This document shows, one piece after another, positions 5,636 to 64,000 of a DNA stretch of 64,000 nt. The stretch covers positions 32,352 to 96,351 of the forward strand of contig NZ_POSN01000003.1 of assembly GCF_002994005.1 (NCBI RefSeq), given 5' to 3'. Made by a program: the position numbers and the translations under genes. A model generated the notes under the pieces. It worked only from the letters and a program-made list of their open reading frames with translations. It was not told the DNA's origin and searched no databases. The first letter of the stretch is position 1, and every line of letters starts with the position of its first letter. Source of the stretch: Apilactobacillus quenuiae. GTDB taxonomy: Bacteria > Bacillota > Bacilli > Lactobacillales > Lactobacillaceae.

Positions 5636-7330
5636 ATGACAATTAATAGAAAAAAACAAGTTGCTATAATATTAGCAACTTGTATTGGTATATTTTTATG
5701 TATGTTAGACACAACAGTCATGAATATAGCTTTACCATCGATACAGAATGATTTAGACATAAACCTAAATAATTTATCTTGGGCTCTAAATATATATACA
5801 ATAACATTTGCTTCATTAACTATACCTTTAAGTAAACTAGCAGATAATTTAGGAAGAAATAAGATATATATATTAGGTATCTTATCATTTATAGTTGGTT
5901 CATTAATTTCTTCTATGAGTAATAATCTAACTTTTTTAATATTAGGAAGAGGAATTCAAAGTATAGGTGCCTCAATAGTGTTCCCATTATCAATGACCAT
6001 TGGGATAAATACTGTCCCCATGGAAAAAAGAAAAAGCATAATATCAATTTTAGGAATAACTCAAGGATTAGCTGCAGCATTAGGTCCTTCAATTGGTGGA
6101 ACATTAACTCAATTTTTAGGTTGGAGATGGATATTTATTATTAATATTCCATTGATGATTGTATCCCTGATAATTTGTTTAATAAAATTTAATTTTAAAG
6201 AGAAAAGTGAAGATAATGGTATTGATTATTTGGGTTCTGTATTAGGAATAATATTCATGATGTCTTTAACTTTAACGTTGGTCCAAGGTAAAAGTTGGGG
6301 ATGGAATAGTAAAATAATAATTTCATTAATAATAACCACTATTATATCAATATTAATATTTATTATTTGGGAACATCGAGCAAATAGCCCAATGATTCCA
6401 CTAAAACTATTCAAAAATAGAGAATTTACTGGATCTTCAATAGCAATAATATTAAGTAACTTATTTTTAGTTGCAGTAACTGTTATTTTACCCACATTTT
6501 TTACAAAGATTCAAAATAAAAATGAATTAACAGCAGCTATTCTTATTACACCAATTACTGGAATGATTTTTATATTCTCGCCAATTGCAGCAATATTAAT
6601 AAATAAAATTGGTCCAAGACTAATTATTAGCACTGGTTTTATTCTAATGACTATTTCTTATATACTATTTGCAAATATAAATATGGATAATATTTATTAT
6701 ATTGTAATATCATGTTTAATATTAGGAACTGGATACGGAATAATAGCTGGACCTATAACTGTACTGGCCGCATCTAATTTTAAAGGATATTTATTAACAT
6801 CTTCTCAAAGTGTTGCGGGAGTTCTTAGACAAGTTGGGATTTCAATTGCCGTAGCAATTTATGTAACAGGTTTATCATCAAACATTGCTGTTGCCAACAA
6901 TAATTCAGTAAATTATATAAAACAAAATGTAATTAAAATGGATATTCCACAGTCAAAAAAGCAAATTATAATTAATAAAGCTACCAAAGAATTATCATCA
7001 AATAAAAGCAATAAAAACGTTACTAATCATTTTTCAAAAGCTGAAAAAGATAAATTAATTAGATTAAACTATAATAAAACTATGAAAAAGTATAATTATA
7101 ATATTCCTCAAAATATAAAGTCCAAAATATATATTGAAGTTCAACAAAAAGTTAACAACAAAATTAAAAAAATAAATAAACAAATCAATCATGTAATATC
7201 AAAAATAAAGAACTATGCATTAAATGAACATAGCAATGCTTTTATTAATTTATATAGATATTCAATAATTTTTGTAGCTTTATCTACACTATCGTTTCTA
7301 TTTTTCCCATCTAAGAACAAAAAAATATAA
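5636..7330 (+). CDS. DHA2-family (14-TM) MFS drug exporter with large K/N-rich loop
   Basis: A 564-residue proton-driven multidrug antiporter of the EmrB/QacA type. The start of TM1 reads LCMLDTTVMNIALPSIQ, a motif A-like region LSKLADNLGRNKIY follows, and motif C lies near GLAAALGPSIGGTL. Between the last two membrane segments there is an outside loop of about 130 residues, rich in Lys and Asn and predicted helical. This is much longer than in typical DHA2 exporters. ATA and AGA codons are more frequent than in neighbouring housekeeping genes, hinting at transfer. Controlled by the divergent PadR. Paralogous to 50108-51853. Confidence 0.93.
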   Translation: MTINRKKQVAIILATCIGIFLCMLDTTVMNIALPSIQNDLDINLNNLSWALNIYTITFASLTIPLSKLADNLGRNKIYILGILSFIVGSLISSMSNNLTFLILGRGIQSIGASIVFPLSMTIGINTVPMEKRKSIISILGITQGLAAALGPSIGGTLTQFLGWRWIFIINIPLMIVSLIICLIKFNFKEKSEDNGIDYLGSVLGIIFMMSLTLTLVQGKSWGWNSKIIISLIITTIISILIFIIWEHRANSPMIPLKLFKNREFTGSSIAIILSNLFLVAVTVILPTFFTKIQNKNELTAAILITPITGMIFIFSPIAAILINKIGPRLIISTGFILMTISYILFANINMDNIYYIVISCLILGTGYGIIAGPITVLAASNFKGYLLTSSQSVAGVLRQVGISIAVAIYVTGLSSNIAVANNNSVNYIKQNVIKMDIPQSKKQIIINKATKELSSNKSNKNVTNHFSKAEKDKLIRLNYNKTMKKYNYNIPQNIKSKIYIEVQQKVNNKIKKINKQINHVISKIKNYALNEHSNAFINLYRYSIIFVALSTLSFLFFPSKNKKI

Positions 7331-41877: not shown

Positions 41878-42864
41878 TTATTGAATAGTTACATCACCAT
41901 TTTCATTAGTAAACTTATATTTTTTTGGAGAGTTAGAGTGACTCAATCCTGGCATAACAGTACTATCACCATTTTCTGAAGAAGTATGAATGTTTGCATT
42001 GTCTTTAGAATTAATTTCACCCTCAATATCACCATTTTCAGAATCAGCATTAAATATGTGCTTAATATCTTGATGTCCAAATGTGATATCGCCATTTTCA
42101 TTTGATAGTTCTAATGAATACCAACTATTATTTCCAAGATCAATATCGCCATTTTCATTTTCTAATTTACTAAATCCTCTAACAGATTTGTTATTTCTGA
42201 TTGACATATCGCCATTTTCACTTTCAATATTAAGCTTTTGAAATGTATTGCTATATATATAAGAATCTCCATTATCCGCTTCAATATAGCTATTATCATC
42301 ATTAAAAGAACTATGTTCAATACTCATATCATTATTTGATGATTCAACATCTATACTTGGAGCTTTAACATTATAAATACTATTAACTGAATTAAGTTTT
42401 AATGGCTTTTCAACTGTTATATCTGAAATATTGATTCTAGAATGTTTTTCACTTTGATTTATATATTTTAAAGATTCTTTGTCAGGTACATATAAAGTAA
42501 TGTTAGTTGAATTTTTACGATTAAAATTATTTAGGAAACCTATTCTAAAGAAATTATGATACCATTCATTACCATTTCCATTAATTTTTAACACACCATC
42601 ATCAACGTTATAGTTAACATCTTGTGTTTTATTTAGTTCTACAGAAATTTTGGGATTCGAACTTTGTTTTATATTAATTGGTATATTACTATTAATATCA
42701 ATTGCATTAAATTTGTCCAAATTTTTGGTATATCTTTGGGTAATTTTTCCGTTTACTGTTTCATTTGATTTAGGCATTGAAAATCCATTGGTTGTAAATC
42801 CGATAAGGAATAATACTAATCCAGAAGTTAGTAAAATTATTGCTATTTTAATATATTTTTTCAT
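41878..42864 (-). CDS. DUF4097 beta-helix protein, membrane anchored
   Basis: 328 residues. One N-terminal membrane anchor (about 6-24) precedes an external right-handed beta-helix-like body. The last 130 residues carry six ENGD motifs plus one DNGD, one per rung of about 20-25 residues, as in LiaG/DUF4097 proteins. Its ATG shares one base with the stop of the DUF1700 gene. Last gene of a PadR-DUF1700-DUF4097 operon, a layout associated with envelope stress control. Confidence 0.85.
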   Translation of the reverse strand: MKKYIKIAIILLTSGLVLFLIGFTTNGFSMPKSNETVNGKITQRYTKNLDKFNAIDINSNIPINIKQSSNPKISVELNKTQDVNYNVDDGVLKINGNGNEWYHNFFRIGFLNNFNRKNSTNITLYVPDKESLKYINQSEKHSRINISDITVEKPLKLNSVNSIYNVKAPSIDVESSNNDMSIEHSSFNDDNSYIEADNGDSYIYSNTFQKLNIESENGDMSIRNNKSVRGFSKLENENGDIDLGNNSWYSLELSNENGDITFGHQDIKHIFNADSENGDIEGEINSKDNANIHTSSENGDSTVMPGLSHSNSPKKYKFTNENGDVTIQ

Positions 42865-43436
42865 TATGCAACCTCCTTATTATAACTTTTATGAAAAATA
42901 CTATTAAATAAAGAAATACAACATTTAACAGTTAATTTATAAATTCCTATGCAAAGTTTATAACAAGATGGAGTCAAAATAACTGCTAATCCAATTGAAA
43001 AAATTGATATACCAATTTGCATTAAAGCGATTTGCATACTATCAAAAATATATATAATTCCTGATATAACTCCAATAATTCCACCGAAAAACAGACCGAA
43101 CAATAAACTAAAAATAGTAATTAAAATAGAGAATACAATGCTAATAACAATAATGACAAAGCTTAATAGAAATGGAGATGCTAAAATCATTAATAATATA
43201 ACCCACCAATCAATGTGACGAGATTCTTGATTTATATCTTTGTTAGTATCTAATCCAAAACCATTTAAAATATTTTTCGATAAGTTTTTTGGAGATCCAA
43301 GTTCTCTAACACAGTCTTCATATTTAGAAAAACCTCCATCTTCCAAAAATTCACTATAATATTTTATTACATTTGAATATTCATCCTCATTAAGAGAAGA
43401 TAAATATTGTTTTAATTCATCAATATATTTAATCAT
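42864..43436 (-). CDS. DUF1700/HAAS-domain membrane protein
   Basis: 190 residues. An N-terminal cytosolic HAAS-type helical domain (YIDELKQYLSSLNEDEY ... ECVRELG-like segment DCVRELGSPKNLSKNIL) is followed by three membrane segments (about 75-95, 100-128 and 132-165). HAAS proteins are known partners of PadR-like regulators. It overlaps the PadR gene by 8 nt and DUF4097 by 1 nt, so all three are translationally linked. Confidence 0.87.
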   Translation of the reverse strand: MIKYIDELKQYLSSLNEDEYSNVIKYYSEFLEDGGFSKYEDCVRELGSPKNLSKNILNGFGLDTNKDINQESRHIDWWVILLMILASPFLLSFVIIVISIVFSILITIFSLLFGLFFGGIIGVISGIIYIFDSMQIALMQIGISIFSIGLAVILTPSCYKLCIGIYKLTVKCCISLFNSIFHKSYNKEVA

Positions 43437-43746
43437 TATTATTTTCCCCCATTAGATAATCAATATTTATTTTAAAATTTTCCCAATTCTCTTTTAATAT
43501 AGATAATTCTCTGTTGCCATCACTAGTAATTCTATAATATCTACGATTTCTACCCTGATAAGGAGAATCATAAACAGTTACTAATCCTTGCTTTTTCAGT
43601 CTCCGCATAACTGGATAAATAGTAGAACTTGATACTGAGATGCTCTCTTGAATTTTTTGAGTTAAAGCATAACCATAATAATCATCTTTACTTAAAACAC
43701 CCAGTACACACCCATCTAATAATTCAGTTGTAACTTTAAGTGCCAT
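43429..43746 (-). CDS. PadR-family regulator (short, envelope operon)
   Basis: A 105-residue PadR winged helix of the short subfamily: LLDGCVLGVLSKDDYYGYALTQ, SSSTIYPVMRRLKKQGLV, GRNRRYYRITSDGNREL. GAGGTG precedes the ATG. The operator is probably the 21-bp palindrome at 43777-43797. First gene of the three-gene operon. Confidence 0.92.
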   Translation of the reverse strand: MALKVTTELLDGCVLGVLSKDDYYGYALTQKIQESISVSSSTIYPVMRRLKKQGLVTVYDSPYQGRNRRYYRITSDGNRELSILKENWENFKINIDYLMGENNND

Positions 43747-43797: not shown

Positions 43798-43845
43798 ATT
43801 ATACATCATGATATGTTATTTTCAATAAATCTGTTTATTCCAAAT

Positions 43846-43886
43846 AAAAATGGTGCTATTCGTATATCACGAACAACACCATTTTT
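43846..43886 (-). terminator. Terminator of the small-peptide cluster
   Basis: An 18-bp stem AAAAATGGTGCTATTCGT / ACGAACAACACCATTTTT with two G-U-compatible mismatches and a 5-nt loop. It sits right after the stop of the fifth mini-gene. Confidence 0.85.
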
Positions 43887-43889
43887 AAT

Positions 43890-44030
43890 TTAAGTTGGGG
43901 GTAATTCTACTTTAATAGAATTAGTAATGTAATTATTAAATGAATTGATAAATACATTACCCTTTCCATCTTTATATACACCAATTGGTAAAGCATGTTT
44001 ACTTGAATTTAAGTTTAAATTTTTAATCAT
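43890..44030 (-). CDS. Small peptide 5 of RLKR cluster (46 aa)
   Basis: ATG with AGGGAGATG 6-10 nt upstream; 46 codons. It begins MIKNLNLNSS and contains LPIGVYKDG (14-22), matching LPTGIYKDD in peptide 1 at six of nine positions. It lacks the RLKR tail and ends VELPPT. Net charge about +3. No signal peptide or membrane segment. Family unknown. Confidence 0.6.
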   Translation of the reverse strand: MIKNLNLNSSKHALPIGVYKDGKGNVFINSFNNYITNSIKVELPPT

Positions 44031-44066
44031 GATACCATCTCCCTTACTGATTAAATATATTTATAA

Positions 44067-44156
44067 TCAGTGCTTTAAACGAGCTAAGTGTTCAGAAAAT
44101 GTATCATTTTTAATTTTAAATGATTTATATTTGAATTGATTTAAACATCTTTCCAT
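44067..44156 (-). CDS. Small peptide 4 of RLKR cluster (29 aa)
   Basis: 29 codons starting 8 nt after AGGAGATG. It begins MERCLNQFKYKSFK, carries one Cys, and ends HLARLKH, a variant of the RLKR tail. Net charge about +4 without histidines. Family unknown. Confidence 0.6.
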   Translation of the reverse strand: MERCLNQFKYKSFKIKNDTFSEHLARLKH

Positions 44157-44195
44157 ATTAATCATCTCCTAATAACGTAACTCACCATAATTAAG

Positions 44196-44291
44196 TTAAC
44201 GCTTTAGACGATCACGTCTTTTCAGAGCTTCTTTTGAAATAATTGATAAACTTCTAATGTTAGATTTAAAATTCAGATTTTTTCTAGTCAT
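44196..44291 (-). CDS. Small peptide 3 of RLKR cluster (31 aa)
   Basis: 31 codons starting 8 nt after AGGAGATG. It begins MTRKNLNFKSNIRSL and ends LKRRDRLKR. Strongly cationic (about +9). It shares the NLN front with peptides 2 and 5. Family unknown. Confidence 0.62.
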   Translation of the reverse strand: MTRKNLNFKSNIRSLSIISKEALKRRDRLKR

Positions 44292-44323
44292 ATTAACCAT
44301 CTCCTAAATGATTTTATATAAAA

Positions 44324-44398
44324 CTAACGCTTTAAGCGATCCAAACGTTTACCAGAAATTTCAATGTTAATATACAAATTTAAATTTTTATTCTTCAT
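44324..44398 (-). CDS. Small peptide 2 of RLKR cluster (24 aa)
   Basis: 24 codons starting after AAAGGGGATG. It begins MKNKNLNLYINIEIS and ends GKRLDRLKR directly at the stop codon. Net charge about +5. Family unknown. Confidence 0.62.
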   Translation of the reverse strand: MKNKNLNLYINIEISGKRLDRLKR

Positions 44399-44428
44399 AG
44401 TAACATCCCCTTTAATAATTAAAGAAAT

Positions 44429-44587
44429 TTAATTAAAGGAACGCTTCAACTTATCCAATCGAGTAGTCGAGACGTCAATATAATTAAAAATACTTCTCAT
44501 ATCATCTTTGTAAATACCCGTAGGTAATTTAATTTTTTGCATTACCAAGTGCAACAACTTTAAGCGATTTTTATTATTCTTAATCAT
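44429..44587 (-). CDS. Small peptide 1 of RLKR cluster (52 aa)
   Basis: 52 codons, first of the cluster, starting 6 nt after GGAGGAGA. A basic helical front (KNRLKLLHLVMQKIK) is followed by LPTGIYKDD (21-29) and a C-terminal TTRLDKLKRSFN, the RLKR-like motif plus three residues. Net charge about +8. No signal peptide. Family unknown. Confidence 0.65.
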   Translation of the reverse strand: MIKNNKNRLKLLHLVMQKIKLPTGIYKDDMRSIFNYIDVSTTRLDKLKRSFN

Positions 44588-44620
44588 ATTTATCTCCTCC
44601 TATCGATTAAGATTATCCTC

Positions 44621-44648
44621 ATAATACTCTCATTATTTTTTAATGCAA
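44621..44648 (-). promoter_or_regulatory. Promoter of the small-peptide cluster
   Basis: TTGCAT (44648-44643), 16-bp spacer, TATTAT (44626-44621), about 34 bp before the first mini-gene ATG. Confidence 0.6.
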
Positions 44649-44669: not shown

Positions 44670-44700
44670 AAAAAAAGAGCTGATAAATTATCAGCTCTTA
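44670..44700 (-). terminator. Terminator of the D,D-carboxypeptidase gene
   Basis: AGAGCTGATAA / TTATCAGCTCT stem with T run on the minus strand, separating dacA from the mini-gene cluster. Confidence 0.85.
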
Positions 44701-44709
44701 ATTATAGAT

Positions 44710-45696
44710 TTATTGTGCCATTGCAGGCGTGCTATCATTTGTTCTTTGTCTATTTGTATCAGTTTGATTAAAATATGGTGAATACTTATAAATAGCCTTA
44801 TACATCTTCGATTGACTATAAGCACTAAAACGATCATTTAAAGTAACAATAATTACTCGATCTTTGCCCGGCAACTGACTAGTACTTACTAAAGTATTAC
44901 CAGCTAAAGGTGTATAACCTGTCTTTAAACCATCAACATGTAGTTCAGGATAGTATCTTAATCCACCCTTCAATAATTCATTTGTATTGTGCATCCATTG
45001 ACCATTTTGTTTAGCTCTATAAAGCTTAGATGTATTTACAATATCTGGATATATTTTTAATACATTAGAAGCAATAATTCCTAAAGCTTTAGCACTAAGT
45101 TTATTGTAGGAATAATATCCACCATATCTAATTCCATATCCATATAAATCTGAGTTTTCAAGACCAGAAGCCGAAACAAAAGTTGCTTGACGACCTAATC
45201 CCCAGTCTCTAGCTTGTTGATTCATCTTCTTAATAAAGTTGGTATTAGAACCAGCAACCCATTGTCCTAAAGCAATCGCTGCACTGTTAGATGAAGCAAT
45301 AACCGTCGCACGGTACAAGTTATTCACAGTGTATTGTTTGCCTGCAACTAATTTATAACTGCCCAAAGAACGATTATGACTCATATTAGCAAGATTCTTG
45401 GGCATGGTAATCTTTTGATTCCAACCATTTCTCATACTTTGTGCTTTTTGAATTGCTAAATATAAAGTCATTAATTTAGCAGTTGAAGCTACTGGAAGTT
45501 TACTATAAGCATTTTTACGATAAAAAACATGTCCATCATTCATATCAAATGCATAAGCAGCCTTTGCAGTTTTAGCATTATTATTCATTTGAGTATTATA
45601 AGAACTAGCACTAGCAGTAATCCCATTAGCAGTAGCTCCTAAGGTCACTAAACTCAATGTAACTAATAATGTTTTTTTCATCCATTTAAAATTCAT
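44710..45696 (-). CDS. dacA: D-alanyl-D-alanine carboxypeptidase (PBP5-like)
   Basis: 328 residues with signal peptide. The serine-peptidase S11 motifs are complete: SxxK at Ser71-Lys74 (STAK), SxN at Ser135-Asn137 and KTG at 258-260. It trims pentapeptide stems of peptidoglycan. The chain ends about 50 residues after KTG (TPAMAQ), so the usual C-terminal beta domain and amphipathic membrane anchor are missing. It may be released or held by other means. Confidence 0.92.
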   Translation of the reverse strand: MNFKWMKKTLLVTLSLVTLGATANGITASASSYNTQMNNNAKTAKAAYAFDMNDGHVFYRKNAYSKLPVASTAKLMTLYLAIQKAQSMRNGWNQKITMPKNLANMSHNRSLGSYKLVAGKQYTVNNLYRATVIASSNSAAIALGQWVAGSNTNFIKKMNQQARDWGLGRQATFVSASGLENSDLYGYGIRYGGYYSYNKLSAKALGIIASNVLKIYPDIVNTSKLYRAKQNGQWMHNTNELLKGGLRYYPELHVDGLKTGYTPLAGNTLVSTSQLPGKDRVIIVTLNDRFSAYSQSKMYKAIYKYSPYFNQTDTNRQRTNDSTPAMAQ

Positions 45697-50107: not shown

Positions 50108-51853
50108 ATGATAAAGAAAAAATTCATTTTGCCAGTTTTAATGTTAGCCACCATATTGTGTATGATGGATGTTTCAATAATGACTATTTTGTTACCAGAT
50201 ATTCAAACAGCTTTTAATCAAAGTTTAGAAAATTTATCATGGACCATCAATGTATATACCATTGTCTTTGCAACATTAATCATTCCTTTTGGTAGATTAG
50301 CAGAAAAAATCGGACAAAATAAATTTGTATTTATTGGTTTAATTGTATTTGGAACTGGATCTTTTCTATCAGGTTTTTCATCAAATTTACCAATCATGTT
50401 ATGTGCTAGAATCATTCAAAGTGTTGGTGCTGCAGCTATTATTCCGACTAGCATGGTCATTGGTATTTCACATTTTAGTGTTAAAAATAGAAATAAAGTG
50501 GTTGCTGCACTTGCCGGTTCCCAAGGACTAGCAGTAGCAATTGGACCAAGTTTTGGTGGTACTATTGCTCAATATTTAAGTTGGCGTTGGGCATTTTACA
50601 TCAATGTACCACTAGTAATAATTGCTTTAATTATTTTTGCATGCATCTTACCAATGCATAATGAAAAAACCAATAATGCAAAAATTGATTATATTGGTTC
50701 CATTTTAAGTATGATAACTCTATTTGCATTGTCACTTGGCTTAGTGCAAGGCAACAACTGGGGTTGGTCGTCTTTATTAACTATTTCTCTATTCATAGGA
50801 TCAGCTGGAGCATTTATTTTGTTTCTTATTGTTGAACTAAAGAGTTCCCATCCTATGATTGATATGTATTTGTTTAAAAGTAGAAACTTTAACGGTGCAA
50901 GTTTAGCTTTAATTTTAGCTAACTTCTTATTAGGTGGCTTTGCCGCACTAATTCCAACTTTTTTAACTAGAATTCATGGTCAAAGTGAACTAAACGCCGC
51001 TTTACTGATTACTCCATATTCAATTGCTGTAATGTTTGCTACCATTATTTCATCACTATTAGTTAAAAAATTAAATAAAAAGTTATTTATCGGTGCTGGA
51101 TTTATAATGATTGCCATTGGATACTACTTTCTATCTATAATGAATGTAAGCAAAAACTACCATCAATTATTAATTGGTGCGATCGTCTTAGGTATAGGTT
51201 ATGGAATGGTTGCTGCAACCGCAAATATTTTGGCAGTTGCAGATTTTAAAGGCAGCTTATTGACTAGTTCACAAAGTGTAGCTAATGTTTTAAGACAAGT
51301 CGGAATCGTCCTAGCCATAGCTACATTTATGACAGTATTATCAGGAAACGTTAGAAATGCTAAACAAAACACACTTAACTACGCTAAAAGCCAAGTTACT
51401 AATCTAAATTTGTCCACCGCTATTCAAAAAAAAATTAATCATAAGTTAGAACATAAACTAAATCCTAATAGTAATAATGTCACTAACGTTAAAAATTCAG
51501 TATCTTTTAATGGCGAAAGAATATCACAAAAACAACGTGAAGCAAAAATTAACGATGTTTATAACGAAAAACTTGTATTAATTGCATTCAAAAATAACAT
51601 TCCAGAAAGTAAAATTCCTCAAGCGATGAAAACAAAGTTAAAGGGAATAATTGCACAAAAAGTTAATCAAAAAATTAATGAGACCTTACGAAAGGATAAT
51701 CATAAAATAAATAACTTATTGCACAAAATTAAGCATCATGCAAAGCATCAATTGAATAAATCCTTCTTAGATGTTTATAAGGTTATGCTATCAATCCCTA
51801 TTATTTCATTGTTAGTTGTTCCAATATTCAAATTTAATAAGAAAAAATATTAA
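50108..51853 (+). CDS. DHA2-family MFS drug exporter, paralogue with large loop
   Basis: 581 residues, 14 membrane segments. TM1 CMMDVSIMTILLPDIQ, motif A GRLAEKIGQNKFV, motif C near GLAVAIGPSFGGTIA. As in 5636-7330, an external loop of about 140 residues rich in Lys, Asn and His separates TM13 and TM14 (from SGNVRNAKQ to KSFLDVYKVM). Regulated by the divergent TetR. Probably exports cationic or amphipathic toxins; substrate unknown. Confidence 0.93.
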   Translation: MIKKKFILPVLMLATILCMMDVSIMTILLPDIQTAFNQSLENLSWTINVYTIVFATLIIPFGRLAEKIGQNKFVFIGLIVFGTGSFLSGFSSNLPIMLCARIIQSVGAAAIIPTSMVIGISHFSVKNRNKVVAALAGSQGLAVAIGPSFGGTIAQYLSWRWAFYINVPLVIIALIIFACILPMHNEKTNNAKIDYIGSILSMITLFALSLGLVQGNNWGWSSLLTISLFIGSAGAFILFLIVELKSSHPMIDMYLFKSRNFNGASLALILANFLLGGFAALIPTFLTRIHGQSELNAALLITPYSIAVMFATIISSLLVKKLNKKLFIGAGFIMIAIGYYFLSIMNVSKNYHQLLIGAIVLGIGYGMVAATANILAVADFKGSLLTSSQSVANVLRQVGIVLAIATFMTVLSGNVRNAKQNTLNYAKSQVTNLNLSTAIQKKINHKLEHKLNPNSNNVTNVKNSVSFNGERISQKQREAKINDVYNEKLVLIAFKNNIPESKIPQAMKTKLKGIIAQKVNQKINETLRKDNHKINNLLHKIKHHAKHQLNKSFLDVYKVMLSIPIISLLVVPIFKFNKKKY

Positions 51854-59501: not shown

Positions 59502-61043
59502 TTAATAGCGCTTCTTAAAAATAGCAAAAGCAATTGAAGAAATAGCGATCATTAAAGCTCCAAGTATTGATAATTTACTATTATCACTTGCACCAGTTTG
59601 TGGTAATTTATTTGATTGTTTATTAACAAATAAATTTGGCTCGTGATGTTGTTCAATGGGTTTAGCCTTAGGATGGTTATCAACATTCTTTTTATATGTC
59701 CATTCTTGTTTAACAGTATCTTTTCCATCATTACTTGGTGTTGGATTACTATTGGTATTATTTTTTAATAGATTATTAGGTGTCTTTAAAACATCAGTAA
59801 TGTGGTTTTTAGGTAATTGGCTGTTGTTAGTTTTATTTTTTAATAGGTTATCAGGTTTCTTTAAAGTATTAGTAATATGTTCATCAGGTGATTGATTATT
59901 GTTATTTAATTGAACCGTATTCTGGTTAGAATTAACTGGAGGATTAACGTTACTATTATTTTGATTATTATCGTTATTTGATGATGGTACTAATGTATTA
60001 GAACTATTGTTAGTGTCTGGTTGATTATTATTTTTAGGAACCGTAGTCCCCTTATTGTCATCATTTGGTTGTGAATTTTGATTAGTTTGATTGTTATTAT
60101 TACCGTTCGCAGTTCCATATCCACCTGCTAAAATACGTGCATTAGATGATTGGCTTATGAAACTAGGATTACCATTATCACTTGCATTACCATTATTATA
60201 TTGTGCAGAAATAGTGGCATTATTAGTAGCATCGCTTAAATTATTTTCACTAGATTGATTCATCTTAGTTTCATAAACTAAGCTAACATCCTTGTTAATT
60301 GATCCACCATTATTAATACTAAACTGAAGTTTACCATTATTATTACTTACATTAACTGGAACATTTTGATTATCAGAAATAAATTGGTTGTCATTACTTG
60401 TATCTACGTGGCCTAAAGTAGCACTAACATTTCCTAAATAGGTTTGATTAGAACTTAAAGTATCTGATATTTGTACATTACTAATGGTCTTATTGGATGG
60501 ATTAAAGTTGATATTCCAAATAATTTTGTTGGGATCATCATGAGAAATCCATCCGTATTTGTTAATCATCCAACTATTGTCAGTGATGGAATTATCTTTC
60601 ATCCCTTTAACTGATTCAACGATATTAATTGATTTATTTTTTAAATCATTATAATTTTGGTCAGTAAATGTTAACTTTCCTACTCTTTGACCGGCTTCGG
60701 CAGTGAAATTTCCAATGACTGCTCCACTAGTATTCTTAACAGAAAAACTATTATTCCTAGTAGAATTAACATTATCCGGTAAGCTTATATATACATAATC
60801 ACCATTTTTGATCGATATACTATCGCTAATTGAAAAAGATCGACTAATTGTATAGTCAGAATATTTATCTAATGAATTGCTTTGAGTAACATCATTATTT
60901 GAACTATCCTTTATATTATAGGTATAGTTAGTTAAACTATTACTATTAATTTCATCTGCATGTGCATTACCACTCATCATGAAAAATGACCCTGCAAATG
61001 TAATTGGTAATGATGCAGCAGCAATTTTAATAACTTTTTTCAA
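59502..61043 (-). CDS. LPXTG-anchored adhesin-like surface protein
   Basis: 513 residues from a TTG start 8 nt after GAAAGGA. Signal peptide (cleavage near AHA-D). An adhesin-type region of about 280 residues resembles Ig-like SdrG/collagen-binding folds (ISDSISIKNGDYVYISLPD, KTISNVQISDTL, VSLVYETKM). An Asn/Pro-rich stalk has repeated HIT-[ND]-x-LK-x-P-[DN]-NLLKN units, and LPQTG, hydrophobic segment and KKRY end the chain. Substrate of the adjacent sortase. Confidence 0.88.
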   Translation of the reverse strand: MKKVIKIAAASLPITFAGSFFMMSGNAHADEINSNSLTNYTYNIKDSSNNDVTQSNSLDKYSDYTISRSFSISDSISIKNGDYVYISLPDNVNSTRNNSFSVKNTSGAVIGNFTAEAGQRVGKLTFTDQNYNDLKNKSINIVESVKGMKDNSITDNSWMINKYGWISHDDPNKIIWNINFNPSNKTISNVQISDTLSSNQTYLGNVSATLGHVDTSNDNQFISDNQNVPVNVSNNNGKLQFSINNGGSINKDVSLVYETKMNQSSENNLSDATNNATISAQYNNGNASDNGNPSFISQSSNARILAGGYGTANGNNNNQTNQNSQPNDDNKGTTVPKNNNQPDTNNSSNTLVPSSNNDNNQNNSNVNPPVNSNQNTVQLNNNNQSPDEHITNTLKKPDNLLKNKTNNSQLPKNHITDVLKTPNNLLKNNTNSNPTPSNDGKDTVKQEWTYKKNVDNHPKAKPIEQHHEPNLFVNKQSNKLPQTGASDNSKLSILGALMIAISSIAFAIFKKRY

Positions 61044-61333
61044 AAAATCATTCCTTTCAAAATATATTTTGTACAAATAAAGTATATATTTTTATTGAAT
61101 GTGTTACTTTGTATACTTTTTGAAATAAAATCAAAATTAATAGATAAACAAAGATTCTTATTTTTTAAAATTATAATAATGGCTAATTATAGAATAGATA
61201 TATTTAATAAATAAAATATTAGGAAAACATAGGTCTATACAAAAAGCACTTTCAAATTATATTATTAAAATAATAATATATCGAAAGTGCTTTTATTTAT
61301 CTTTTCAAAATTATAGATAGTTTAATGTTAAAT
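61044..61333. other. Intergenic region between the two surface-protein genes
   Basis: About 290 nt, very AT-rich. It holds the upstream region of the LPXTG gene and the terminator of the large surface protein (61241-61294). No ORF or clear operator was seen. Confidence 0.55.
61241..61294 (-). terminator. Terminator of the large surface-protein gene
   Basis: AAAAGCACTTTC / GAAAGTGCTTTT outer stem with an inner AT stem (TATTATT / AATAATA). Confidence 0.85.
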
Positions 61334-64000
61334 TTATTTATTAATGATTTTAACATAACGTTTATTAGCAGTTATATAATCATTATTATATATTTTAAGT
61401 CTATAAATAGTGCCCATTTTACGAACAGACTTAACTTTTAAAATTGTATTTTTCTTATAGCCACGAACTTTTTTAGTTAGATTTAAATGTTTGTATTCAT
61501 TTATACCTTTAGCAATAATTTTGATTTTTCTAACTTTTTTTTCATAATAAAGCTTAGTGACATAGTTTCTTCTAGCTGTAATATAGCCAATGCTATTGCG
61601 TCCATGCATAATTCTATTTGTATAAGGACTAATTCTAATAACCTTATATCTTAAGTTTCCCTTAGATGATCTAGCATAATCAATTACTTTAAACATAGGT
61701 CTATTTATTCTGATATGTTTATTGAATCCATGTATTTTATATTTATAAATAAAATAATTTTTTCTATACATATTTAAACCCTTAATAGCATAAATCCTTT
61801 TGCCGATTATACCATGATACTTTTTATGTGAGTCATGTTTATTTGGATTTGAATGATCAGGCTTAATATGATTATTAGGACTTTGTGGATTAGAATTGTC
61901 ATCATTTGCATTTGGTATCTGAGAATTAGAACCATTATTATCATTTGTATTAGGTGTTGATGGTGAAACATCACTACCATTATTCACTAAACGATAAGTA
62001 ACGTAATTTACAATATTAGAAGAATCACCACTTATGTTAGGAATTGATGCAATAACTGTTTTATCTGGGCTATAGTTAACAATCTGAGGTGAAGTAACTT
62101 GGTTAAAAATATTATTGTTGGGATTCCATTGACCATAAGTATCTGTATTATTTACTGGATCATGTGCAACATCTCTACTAAATGATAATTTTTGTTCATC
62201 GTTAGGAGCAATTTCTTTTCCATCTACAGTTAGATATTTTACAGTAGCTGTAACATCTTTTTGTTCTAAAGAATGACTGATATTATGAGCAAAATGTAAT
62301 GTGTATCTATCATTTTCTTTATTTAAGGTGATTGAACTACTACTCAAAGGACTACTAGTCAATTTATTAAACTTATATCTTGAATCATTCAAAATTGAGC
62401 TATCAGGAACATAGTTGATTGAGCTTCCCTGACTTCCAGTTAATGTATCAGTCTTAATCAATTTATTTGATGTATCATCATAATAATTAACGTAATTATT
62501 AATAGTTTTTATAACAGTGATTGTTTGTGTTACCTTAGGATTTTGATTATTAATATTTGCTGTACCACCACCTTCTATATATCCTCTTCCATCAGGAGCA
62601 GTTTGTATACTATAAGTAACAGTATAAACACCAGGTTTATCAAATACTCCATTTTTAGGAAGATTACTAGAAGGTTCATTAAATTGGAGACTGCTAAATC
62701 TAGGTTCAGCAATATTTTTATTGTATACTCTTGCAGTTACAATTCCACTGCTAATATCGTTTTTTGGACTCCAGCTATAAGTTGGTTGATTAGTAGTTAA
62801 ATCGATTGTTTTATCTGCAACTCCAGAGATAAAGGGATATCCATTAGTATAATTTTCTGGAACATTAACAAATCTACCAGATTCGCTAAGTGAATGATTA
62901 CCACCATCATAAGTTGCGCTTGATTGTACTTCAACATTTGCTTTTAATGCGTCTGTCTCATTATGAGCATCAACTAAAACATGATTTATCAAATAATAAA
63001 TTGAGCCATATGAATTAGCACGGCTAATATTCACTTGATGATCATTAACTATATCCCAATTAATTAGAGGCTTTTCATTATTAATATTCTTATTACTAGA
63101 CAATTCTTCATTACTAACCTTGCTACCGTCTGTATTATAAATAGTAATATTATTTTGAGGATCAATAACATAATTATACTTACCATCATTACTTCGAATA
63201 ATCGCTCTTGTTGAGGAGGTATCAATTTTATAATTATCAGAAGAAAATTCTAGAGAGTTTGGTTTTGAATTATTAACAGCTTCAAAGGTCTGATAGTAAT
63301 CCCCATCAACTTTAGATGAATTTAAATCATAGAACAAATGAATGTTACTACTATCAGCTCCAAGTGCAGCGGTATTAGCATTAGCATATTTAGGATTAGC
63401 ATTAGTATATTCAAATTCATCACCCTGAACTAAATAATTAGGATATCCTACGCCACCTTGTGAAGCTCCTTTAGGAATGTTGTGAACATAATATACCTGA
63501 TCAGGTATAGCATTATTTGAACTACCCTCATAACTATAATTCCCATCAATGGTTACGGGTTGAACATTATCATTATCCTCTTGTGATCTAGTAGTCAATT
63601 TAAAAACAATATTAGATTGTACAGGTGGATATTGGCTTGCTGTAAATGTATAATTACCACCACTTTTATATTCATGAAAAATATTAGAATCATATTGAAC
63701 ATCTGAAACTTGATTAGGATCTGAAATATTAACATTAACCTTTAAGTTATTGATATTATTTTGATTATTATTAGACAAAGTTAATCCATAAGTTTGTTTA
63801 ACATTATTAGGTGACAAGGATTTATCTTTAGAAGATGGAATTGATAATGAAGTTGCAGAACTAACATTTTTATTATCTTGCAATTCTGTTGTAGCATTTT
63901 TTTGACTTAATACACTACCAAGTGAACTGTTTGCACTTAGTTTATTTGGCGTACCTTGAACATCTAATGTGCTTGATGTTCCTTGACCATTTGCTGCACC
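61334..64000 (-). CDS. Large MucBP/DUF5776 surface protein, N-terminus beyond window edge
   Basis: 889 codons are visible, open to the right edge in frame, so signal peptide and start are missing. A Ser/Asn-rich front and beta-rich modules are followed by two MucBP-like repeats (INNYVNYYDDTSNKLIKTD and VTATVKYLTVDGKEIAPND areas). A Pro/Asn linker then leads to two C-terminal DUF5776 repeats, basic and Tyr-rich (GLNMYRKNYFIYKY... and ...YKKNTILKVKSV). There is no LPXTG; the basic DUF5776 end probably binds the wall by charge. Typical of insect-associated lactobacilli. Confidence 0.87.
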   Translation of the reverse strand, partial: GAANGQGTSSTLDVQGTPNKLSANSSLGSVLSQKNATTELQDNKNVSSATSLSIPSSKDKSLSPNNVKQTYGLTLSNNNQNNINNLKVNVNISDPNQVSDVQYDSNIFHEYKSGGNYTFTASQYPPVQSNIVFKLTTRSQEDNDNVQPVTIDGNYSYEGSSNNAIPDQVYYVHNIPKGASQGGVGYPNYLVQGDEFEYTNANPKYANANTAALGADSSNIHLFYDLNSSKVDGDYYQTFEAVNNSKPNSLEFSSDNYKIDTSSTRAIIRSNDGKYNYVIDPQNNITIYNTDGSKVSNEELSSNKNINNEKPLINWDIVNDHQVNISRANSYGSIYYLINHVLVDAHNETDALKANVEVQSSATYDGGNHSLSESGRFVNVPENYTNGYPFISGVADKTIDLTTNQPTYSWSPKNDISSGIVTARVYNKNIAEPRFSSLQFNEPSSNLPKNGVFDKPGVYTVTYSIQTAPDGRGYIEGGGTANINNQNPKVTQTITVIKTINNYVNYYDDTSNKLIKTDTLTGSQGSSINYVPDSSILNDSRYKFNKLTSSPLSSSSITLNKENDRYTLHFAHNISHSLEQKDVTATVKYLTVDGKEIAPNDEQKLSFSRDVAHDPVNNTDTYGQWNPNNNIFNQVTSPQIVNYSPDKTVIASIPNISGDSSNIVNYVTYRLVNNGSDVSPSTPNTNDNNGSNSQIPNANDDNSNPQSPNNHIKPDHSNPNKHDSHKKYHGIIGKRIYAIKGLNMYRKNYFIYKYKIHGFNKHIRINRPMFKVIDYARSSKGNLRYKVIRISPYTNRIMHGRNSIGYITARRNYVTKLYYEKKVRKIKIIAKGINEYKHLNLTKKVRGYKKNTILKVKSVRKMGTIYRLKIYNNDYITANKRYVKIINK

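What the first reader, a model, noticed from the sequence alone, without database searches (positions are those of the whole stretch)
43846..44648. Operon of five unannotated small cationic peptides with shared RLKR tails
Seen: between a promoter (TTGCAT-16-TATTAT) and a strong terminator there are five consecutive mini-genes of 52, 24, 31, 29 and 46 codons, each with its own strong Shine-Dalgarno. Four end in related tails: RLDKLKRSFN, RLDRLKR, RRDRLKR and HLARLKH. Peptides 1 and 5 share LPxG[IV]YKD, and peptides 2, 3 and 5 share an N-terminal NLN. All are cationic, without signal peptides. Repeated structure with diverged bodies suggests a peptide family (toxin, signalling, antimicrobial or RNA/membrane binding). 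No modification enzyme or dedicated transporter is adjacent. I know of no named family with this pattern.
Basis: partly seen in the sequence, partly recalled or inferred. Interest (0 to 1): 0.92.

Follow-up and report, generated by a model that had tools for sequence, protein, structure and literature searches.

The report
Swappable mini-peptide operon in bee lactobacilli
Some lactic acid bacteria of a bee- and flower-associated genus carry a real, fast-changing operon of tiny, mostly positively charged peptides that matched no known family in our searches and appear to be swapped between species as whole units, but what the peptides do is not known.

Summary
On the MINUS strand, between dacA and a PadR gene, five short ORFs (52, 24, 31, 29, 46 codons) each have a Shine-Dalgarno, behind one conserved promoter/leader and before a strong terminator. 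Homologous loci with 1 to 6 such ORFs (7 loci, 29 peptides) were found in 6 of 16 genomes of the genus and convincingly nowhere else searched. The leader 25-mer matches exactly only at these 7 loci in 397 family genomes. Between close species A5 has dN/dS 0.11-0.14 and A1 0.31-0.52; middle peptides evolve faster but keep a tail. One relative lacks exactly ORF4 plus a spacer; two distant species share a near-identical middle block. Nine relatives lack the array at this site. No family, PDB, phage or plasmid match beyond marginal scores. I saw no modification enzyme, immunity gene or constant partner; one relative has phosphonate-type ABC genes downstream. The window's five are hydrophilic and not clearly amphipathic. 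Function is not shown. I favour intracellular binding peptides in a conflict-type role (0.35) over leaderless bacteriocins (0.2).

The parts
44621..44648 (-). promoter: TTGCAT (44648-44643), 16-nt spacer, TATTAT (44626-44621)
   Evidence: Sequence. TATWAT in 7 of 7 loci, TTGCAT in 5 of 7 (TTGAAT in G007, TTTCAT in G012). Not listed by the consensus scan.
44592..44616 (-). conserved leader ATAATCTTAATYGWTRGGAGGAGAT, including the SD of ORF A1
   Evidence: 7 exact matches in 397 family genomes, all at the 7 loci; 2 other sites, at 3 mismatches, precede full-size genes.
44429..44587 (-). ORF A1, 52 aa, LPTGIYKD motif, tail RLDKLKR then SFN
   Evidence: Homologues in G010 (two loci), G009, G007, G012, G014; dN/dS 0.31-0.52 for the three closest pairs, 0.20 for G009-G007.
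44324..44398 (-). ORF A2, 24 aa, tail RLDRLKR at the C-terminus
   Evidence: Orthologue in G010 with one in-frame 3-nt length difference; dN/dS 0.33 from few changes.
44196..44291 (-). ORF A3, 31 aa, tail RRDRLKR; start taken at ATG 44291, not the ATG at 44300 inside the SD region
   Evidence: Orthologues in G010 and G009; fast-evolving body, dN 0.19-0.25.
44067..44156 (-). ORF A4, 29 aa, tail HLARLKH; start taken at ATG 44156
   Evidence: Absent in G010 together with exactly one spacer; possible relative of G007 ORF5 (by eye). Weakest of the five as a gene.
43890..44030 (-). ORF A5, 46 aa, LPIGVYKDGKGNVF, ends VELPPT
   Evidence: Orthologues in G010, G009, G007; dN/dS 0.11-0.14 among the three closest, 0.27 for G000-G007.
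43842..43890 (-). intrinsic terminator hairpin at the A5 stop codon
   Evidence: Inverted repeat I4, 22-nt arms, 86%; -25.3 kcal/mol, z -7.8.
44675..44699 (-). terminator of upstream dacA, separating it from the array
   Evidence: Inverted repeat I9 and terminator scan.

Best explanation
A self-contained operon makes one mRNA of about 0.75 kb and from it five leaderless, hydrophilic, basic peptides. Shown by sequence: one conserved promoter/leader, separate SDs, terminator, homologous loci with the same leader, constrained first and last peptides, faster-changing middle peptides that keep a common C-terminal tail, and unit-wise differences between species that fit loss and exchange. Inferred: the single mRNA and its translation; that the peptides stay in the cytoplasm; that the shared tail and the GIYKD..[SN]VF core dock to one common acidic or protein partner while the variable bodies set specificity; and that variety is favoured because the role is one of conflict (phage, mobile element or competitor) rather than housekeeping. 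Partner and phenotype are unknown.
For: Family and frames. Leader specific to the loci. Selection: A5 dN/dS 0.11-0.14, A1 0.31-0.52, A3 0.99-3.63; A3's nonsynonymous rate is above dacA's between G000 and G010 (12 of 73 against 27 of 776 sites, Fisher p 4e-5). Unit loss: G010 lacks exactly ORF4 plus one spacer. Exchange: G009 and G007 share ORF2 at 96% DNA identity with 0 synonymous changes in 25.8 sites where dacA has 117.8 in 210, while ORF1 and ORF5 beside the shared ORF2-4 block are at 68% and 57%. Cytoplasmic: GRAVY -0.25 to -1.05 for the five, no signal peptide seen by eye (no predictor was run), hydrophobic moment generally not above residue shuffles. No gene other than the peptides and leader is common to the loci in the flanks read.
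Against: No binding partner, expression or phenotype data. The array's synonymous divergence is lower than dacA's (about 18 of 91 against 87 of 208 sites, p 2e-4), so its dN/dS values may be inflated by exchange or by synonymous constraint; synonymous constraint could also mimic exchange in ORF2. A3's excess of nonsynonymous over synonymous change is not significant (Fisher p 0.29), nor is that of the G009/G007 block (p 0.66), so relaxed selection on the middle ORFs is possible. The G012 and G014 peptides lack the RLKR tail, and one G014 copy is not cationic (-0.5). At the dacA site a PadR gene is next to the array in three genomes and about 5 kb away in G007, so a link to PadR is not excluded there.
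Confidence: 0.35

Rival explanations
1. Leaderless multi-peptide bacteriocin or PSM-like set, exported by a transporter encoded elsewhere, killing relatives; unit exchange reflects competition.
For: Several short leaderless cationic peptides each with its own SD behind one promoter; mosaic, fast-evolving, accessory. G007 has ABC-transporter genes downstream of its array.
Against: Hydrophilic (GRAVY -0.25 to -1.05 for the window five) and no amphipathic helix clearly beyond shuffles. No exporter of leaderless peptides, PH-domain or immunity gene recognised in the flanks read; the G007 ABC genes are of phosphonate type. No match to Pfam or NCBIfam models for the peptides scanned beyond marginal scores.
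Confidence: 0.2
2. Signalling peptides: exported without a Sec signal, cut, and sensed by an intracellular receptor that reads the C-terminal tail.
For: Conserved C-terminal tails on variable bodies in 19 of 29 peptides.
Against: No receptor or regulator gene is common to the loci: a PadR gene is beside the array in three genomes and about 5 kb off in G007, but it is on other contigs than the peptide genes in G012 and G014 and is also present in seven array-free genomes (13 of 16 in all). The tail is internal by 3 residues in A1.
Confidence: 0.1
3. Expressed but weakly constrained young ORFs: middle units drift neutrally, only A1 and A5 have a function.
For: dN/dS near 1 for A3 and for G009/G007 ORF3-4, no significant excess; A4 clearly seen in one genome only.
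Against: The compared orthologues are open, A2 differs by an in-frame triplet, SDs and tails are kept, and five of the seven loci hold 4 to 6 ORFs. I did not search systematically for broken copies.
Confidence: 0.2
4. A1-type peptides imitate the XerC recombinase segment KxxLPxFFYxxEMxxLF and interfere with Xer recombination.
For: The profile hits XerC (TIGR02224) in 3 genomes of one other genus at E 4e-5 to 2e-4 per genome, and the XerC-like genes of G012 and G014 at E 0.6-0.7.
Against: hhalign probability 3.5%; 1 of 200 column shuffles scores as high, which is not significant over a whole proteome. The three genomes are of one genus and 395 were searched. The paralogues' GIYKDGKGNVF looks less like XerC.
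Confidence: 0.04
5. A structured or regulatory RNA, not peptides.
For: The whole stretch folds better than shuffles, z -5.55, 20 shuffles.
Against: That stretch includes two terminators; the gaps between ORFs have z of +0.9 to -3.8. Amino-acid constraint in A1 and A5. No Rfam match at gathering score in the window.
Confidence: 0.05

Closest known systems
Multi-peptide leaderless bacteriocins (aureocin A70, garvicin KS, enterocin DD14)
   Same: Several short leaderless cationic peptides in tandem from one promoter (aureocin A70 and garvicin KS recalled; DD14, two peptides in a 10-gene cluster, from the abstract of PMC8657885).
   Different: No export gene of that type recognised beside the array (DD14 has ABC and PH-domain genes in its cluster); peptides hydrophilic; conserved C-terminal tail; array size varies by single units.
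Phenol-soluble modulin alpha operon of staphylococci (recalled)
   Same: Tandem tiny leaderless peptides, exporter encoded elsewhere.
   Different: PSMs are amphipathic helices; these are not clearly above shuffles. No direct sequence comparison was made.
DUF1127-type small basic proteins (recalled)
   Same: Short, basic, conserved arginine-rich C-terminus, thought to bind RNA.
   Different: No match to any Pfam model at a meaningful score; known from other phyla (recalled); not arranged as variable arrays (recalled).

Membership tests
Multi-peptide leaderless bacteriocin | short peptide without leader or signal | tested here: met
   Sequences, (read by eye; no signal predictor run).
Multi-peptide leaderless bacteriocin | export or immunity genes in the cluster | tested here: not met
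   None recognised beside the window array or in the fetched flanks of the others, read by eye except for the genes given to Pfam. G007 has phosphonate-type ABC genes downstream (PF12974, PF00005). Genes elsewhere in the genome were not searched.
Multi-peptide leaderless bacteriocin | amphipathic or hydrophobic membrane-active peptide | tested here: not met
   GRAVY negative in 28 of 29 peptides; hydrophobic moments not above residue shuffles in general, lowest p 0.04 among many tests.
Multi-peptide leaderless bacteriocin | antibacterial activity | not testable with these tools
   Needs synthetic peptides.
RiPP precursor | modification enzyme nearby | tested here: not met
   None recognised by eye in the ORFs of 80 aa or more near the loci.
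Intracellularly sensed (RRNPPA-type) signal | cognate receptor gene beside the peptide gene | tested here: not met
   No regulator common to the loci; PadR is in 13 of 16 genomes, near the dacA-site arrays but not near the peptide genes of G012 and G014.
Type I toxin peptide | single hydrophobic membrane helix | tested here: not met
   No hydrophobic helix by sequence and GRAVY; antisense RNA was not tested.
XerC-derived fragment | significant profile similarity to XerC | tested here: inconclusive
   Best E 4e-5 per genome with 395 searched, but hhalign 3.5% and 1 of 200 shuffles as good.
Phage or plasmid gene family | homologue in phage or plasmid records | tested here: not met
   No match in phages or plasmids with A1, A5 and the G012 peptide, none in viral contigs with A1. 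The other peptides were not searched there.

The most novel reading that the evidence does not exclude
A modular arsenal of intracellular mini-peptides: a fixed leader and constrained first and last peptides frame interchangeable middle units, each a variable body on a shared C-terminal docking tail, and bacteria of one genus swap these units between species as others swap spacers, toxins or serotype genes. The bodies would be specificity cartridges against phages, mobile elements or rivals.
Probability: 0.15. Interest if true: 0.85.

Novelty: categorically new. Interest (0 to 1): 0.58.

Why it matters
It is a small-protein family unmatched in the libraries searched, with good genomic evidence of being real, and it differs between species by gain, loss and apparent exchange of units of about 20 to 55 codons behind an invariant leader. 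If the bodies give specificity, it would be among the smallest modular diversity systems in bacteria. The novelty label is provisional: it rests on sequence family and evolution, since the activity is unknown and the layout (tandem leaderless peptides) has known analogues.

Tried and rejected
Rejected or weak: (1) Homologues outside the genus. Profile A2 in 397 family genomes matched 25 non-genus genomes up to E 0.1 (best 9.6e-4); 11 of these loci were read and judged chance by eye, as they lacked the LPxGIY core with an SD start; the rest were not read. In 395 order genomes only XerC in three genomes and the same weak G019 hit passed E 0.001 outside the genus. (2) DNA hits in G001-G005, G011 and G013 at query 7-54 are the dacA-type terminator hairpin at other genes. 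Of the further weak hits, one locus (G023) was read; those in G033, G035, G041, G045 and a second one in G003 were not. (3) Tail-codon pattern in 16 genomes: 30 sites (27 for the reversed control), 7 in the known arrays; the other 23 were read and are not array genes by eye. (4) Regulon of the leader: at 0 mismatches only the 7 loci; sites at 1-2 mismatches (43) are no commoner than in the reversed control (57). (5) Structure: AlphaFold of A1 with 8 rows gave two helices (3-18, 26-51) at mean pLDDT 65.8, pTM 0.31, too low to use, so no fold search was made. (6) PDB sequence search: best E 2.2. (7) The 70-80-aa genes beside the G012/G014 peptides are in 10 of 16 genomes, mostly at other places. 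(8) SD sequestration by leader hairpins: the 7 leaders fold with the SD wholly or partly in a loop, but by different pairings; left open. (9) Marginal family hits: NF053829 E 0.017 (14 bits, cut-off 570), phrog_21016 E 0.13, phrog_9697 E 0.21, DUF4467 E 0.093; taken as chance. (10) Papers: 8 searches seen as listings with abstract starts; passages of PMC6685495 and PMC9648514; outline and abstract of PMC8657885. Nothing seen there mentions this family, and an exact-motif text search found 0 papers. Only open-licence papers are held.

Full report
Observation. The array lies on the minus strand between dacA (44710-45696, Peptidase_S11) and a PadR gene (43429-43746). Five ORFs of 52, 24, 31, 29 and 46 codons follow one another with gaps of 30 to 39 bases, each with its own SD. 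Upstream is the dacA terminator, then TTGCAT-16-TATTAT; the last stop codon abuts a strong hairpin terminator. The one named match is Apilactobacillus timberlakei HV_12, 85% identical over A1; its contig length equals that of G010's contig, so G010 is taken to be that genome.

More than chance. Under a strict SD rule that misses A2, the window array has 4 SD-ORFs and a chain of 3; 0 of 1000 dinucleotide shuffles gave a chain of 2 or more. G009 and G007 give chains of 5 and 6. The other loci are weaker by this test: G010 locus B and G014 give 2, G010 locus A and G012 give 1. Over the 29 peptides, the loose tail motif occurs in 19, the strict one in 14, LPxGIY-like in 13 and SVF-like in 16; no residue shuffle of 2000 reached any of these. 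The motifs were defined after looking, and the peptides are related.

Relatives. Seven loci were found in 6 of 16 genus genomes: G000 (5 ORFs), G010 locus A (4), G010 locus B next to rlmH (5; rlmH by NCBIfam), G009 (6), G007 (6), G012 (1) and G014 (2, near-identical, beside nrdD). The other ten genomes have no match better than E 0.2. In nine of them the dacA relative (61-64% identical) is followed directly by purE (AIR carboxylase by Pfam for G006; by eye for the rest), so the site is empty; the tenth, G015, gave no dacA match at 1e-100. The array sits after dacA in G000, G007, G009 and G010. In 397 family and 395 order genomes no convincing homologue was found outside the genus; both sets are samples, and not every weak hit was read.

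Leader. From the -10 box to the first SD the sequence is nearly identical at all seven loci although their ORFs differ. The pattern ATAATCTTAATYGWTRGGAGGAGAT has 7 exact matches in 397 genomes, all at these loci; two sites with 3 mismatches precede full-size genes. A longer pattern with the -10 box likewise has 7 exact sites in 16 genomes, all at these loci.

Selection. dN/dS for A5 is 0.11-0.14 in three close pairs and 0.27 for G000-G007; for A1 0.31-0.52 in three close pairs and 0.20 for G009-G007; A2 0.33 (one pair, few changes); A3 3.63, 1.17 and 0.99; G009/G007 ORF3 1.37 and ORF4 0.78; the two G014 copies 0.08. Some wider A1 pairs were saturated at synonymous sites. dacA has 0.04-0.06 among G000, G009, G010 and 0.09-0.11 against G007. 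A3's excess is not significant by itself (p 0.29), but its nonsynonymous rate exceeds dacA's (p 4e-5); A1's is moderately higher (p 0.014); A5's is not different (p 0.58). Array synonymous divergence is below dacA's (p 2e-4), which points to exchange or to constraint on the DNA.

Mosaic. G010 lacks exactly ORF4 and its following spacer. G009 and G010 are sisters by dacA (dS 0.29) and PadR (0 nonsynonymous changes). Yet after A1, G010 carries A2 as G000 does (89% DNA identity), while G009 carries there the block ORF2-4 that G007 has, at 96, 85 and 79% DNA identity with ORF1 at 68% and ORF5 at 57% around it; A3 and A5 types are shared by G000, G009 and G010. G009/G007 ORF2 has 0 synonymous changes in 25.8 sites; at dacA's rate the chance is about 6e-10. 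Exchange between species is the simplest reading; whether selection or drift changes the middle bodies is not settled.

Nature of the peptides. Those scanned match nothing in Pfam, NCBIfam, PHROGs or PADLOC beyond marginal hits and nothing in the PDB by sequence; A1, A5 and the G012 peptide match nothing in phage or plasmid records. The window five are basic and hydrophilic, with no clear amphipathic signal. AlphaFold gives two helices at low confidence. No gene is common to all loci in the flanks read. The PadR gene occurs in 13 of 16 genomes; it adjoins the array in G000, G009 and G010, lies about 5 kb from it in G007, and is on other contigs than the peptide genes in G012 and G014. G007's array is followed by phosphonate-type ABC genes.

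Mechanism. Shown by sequence: one transcription unit by its signals, separate translation starts, shared tails, unit-wise differences between species. Inferred: cytoplasmic location, a common partner reached by the tail, variable bodies as the specific part, a conflict-type role. The hydrophilic character and the lack of recognised exporter or immunity genes beside the loci speak against the leaderless-bacteriocin reading, though an exporter elsewhere in the genome is not excluded. A local resemblance of A1 to XerC was followed and does not reach significance.

Verdict. Real, restricted to one genus as far as searched, unusual in evolution, unknown in function. Interest 0.58; it would rise sharply if a tail-dependent partner or a phage or competition phenotype were found.

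Noticed in passing
L034 2848-3803 and L035 310-1017: Tandem 70-80-aa genes of a family without a meaningful Pfam match (and none in NCBIfam for the two tried) lie divergently beside the G012 and G014 peptide genes; a relative is in 10 of 16 genus genomes, mostly at other places.
   Followed up: partly
window 41878-43746: PadR, HAAS-domain and DUF4097 (toastrack) genes lie just downstream in what looks like one operon; by eye the HAAS protein differs markedly between the window and G009/G010.
   Followed up: partly
window 5636-7330 and 50108-51853: By eye, two related MFS-type transporters with a similar lysine/asparagine-rich segment near the C-terminus, each near a regulator-like gene.
   Followed up: no
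window 59502-61076: By eye, a surface protein ending in an LPQTG sortase-type signal, next to a long asparagine-rich protein at 61334-63883.
   Followed up: no
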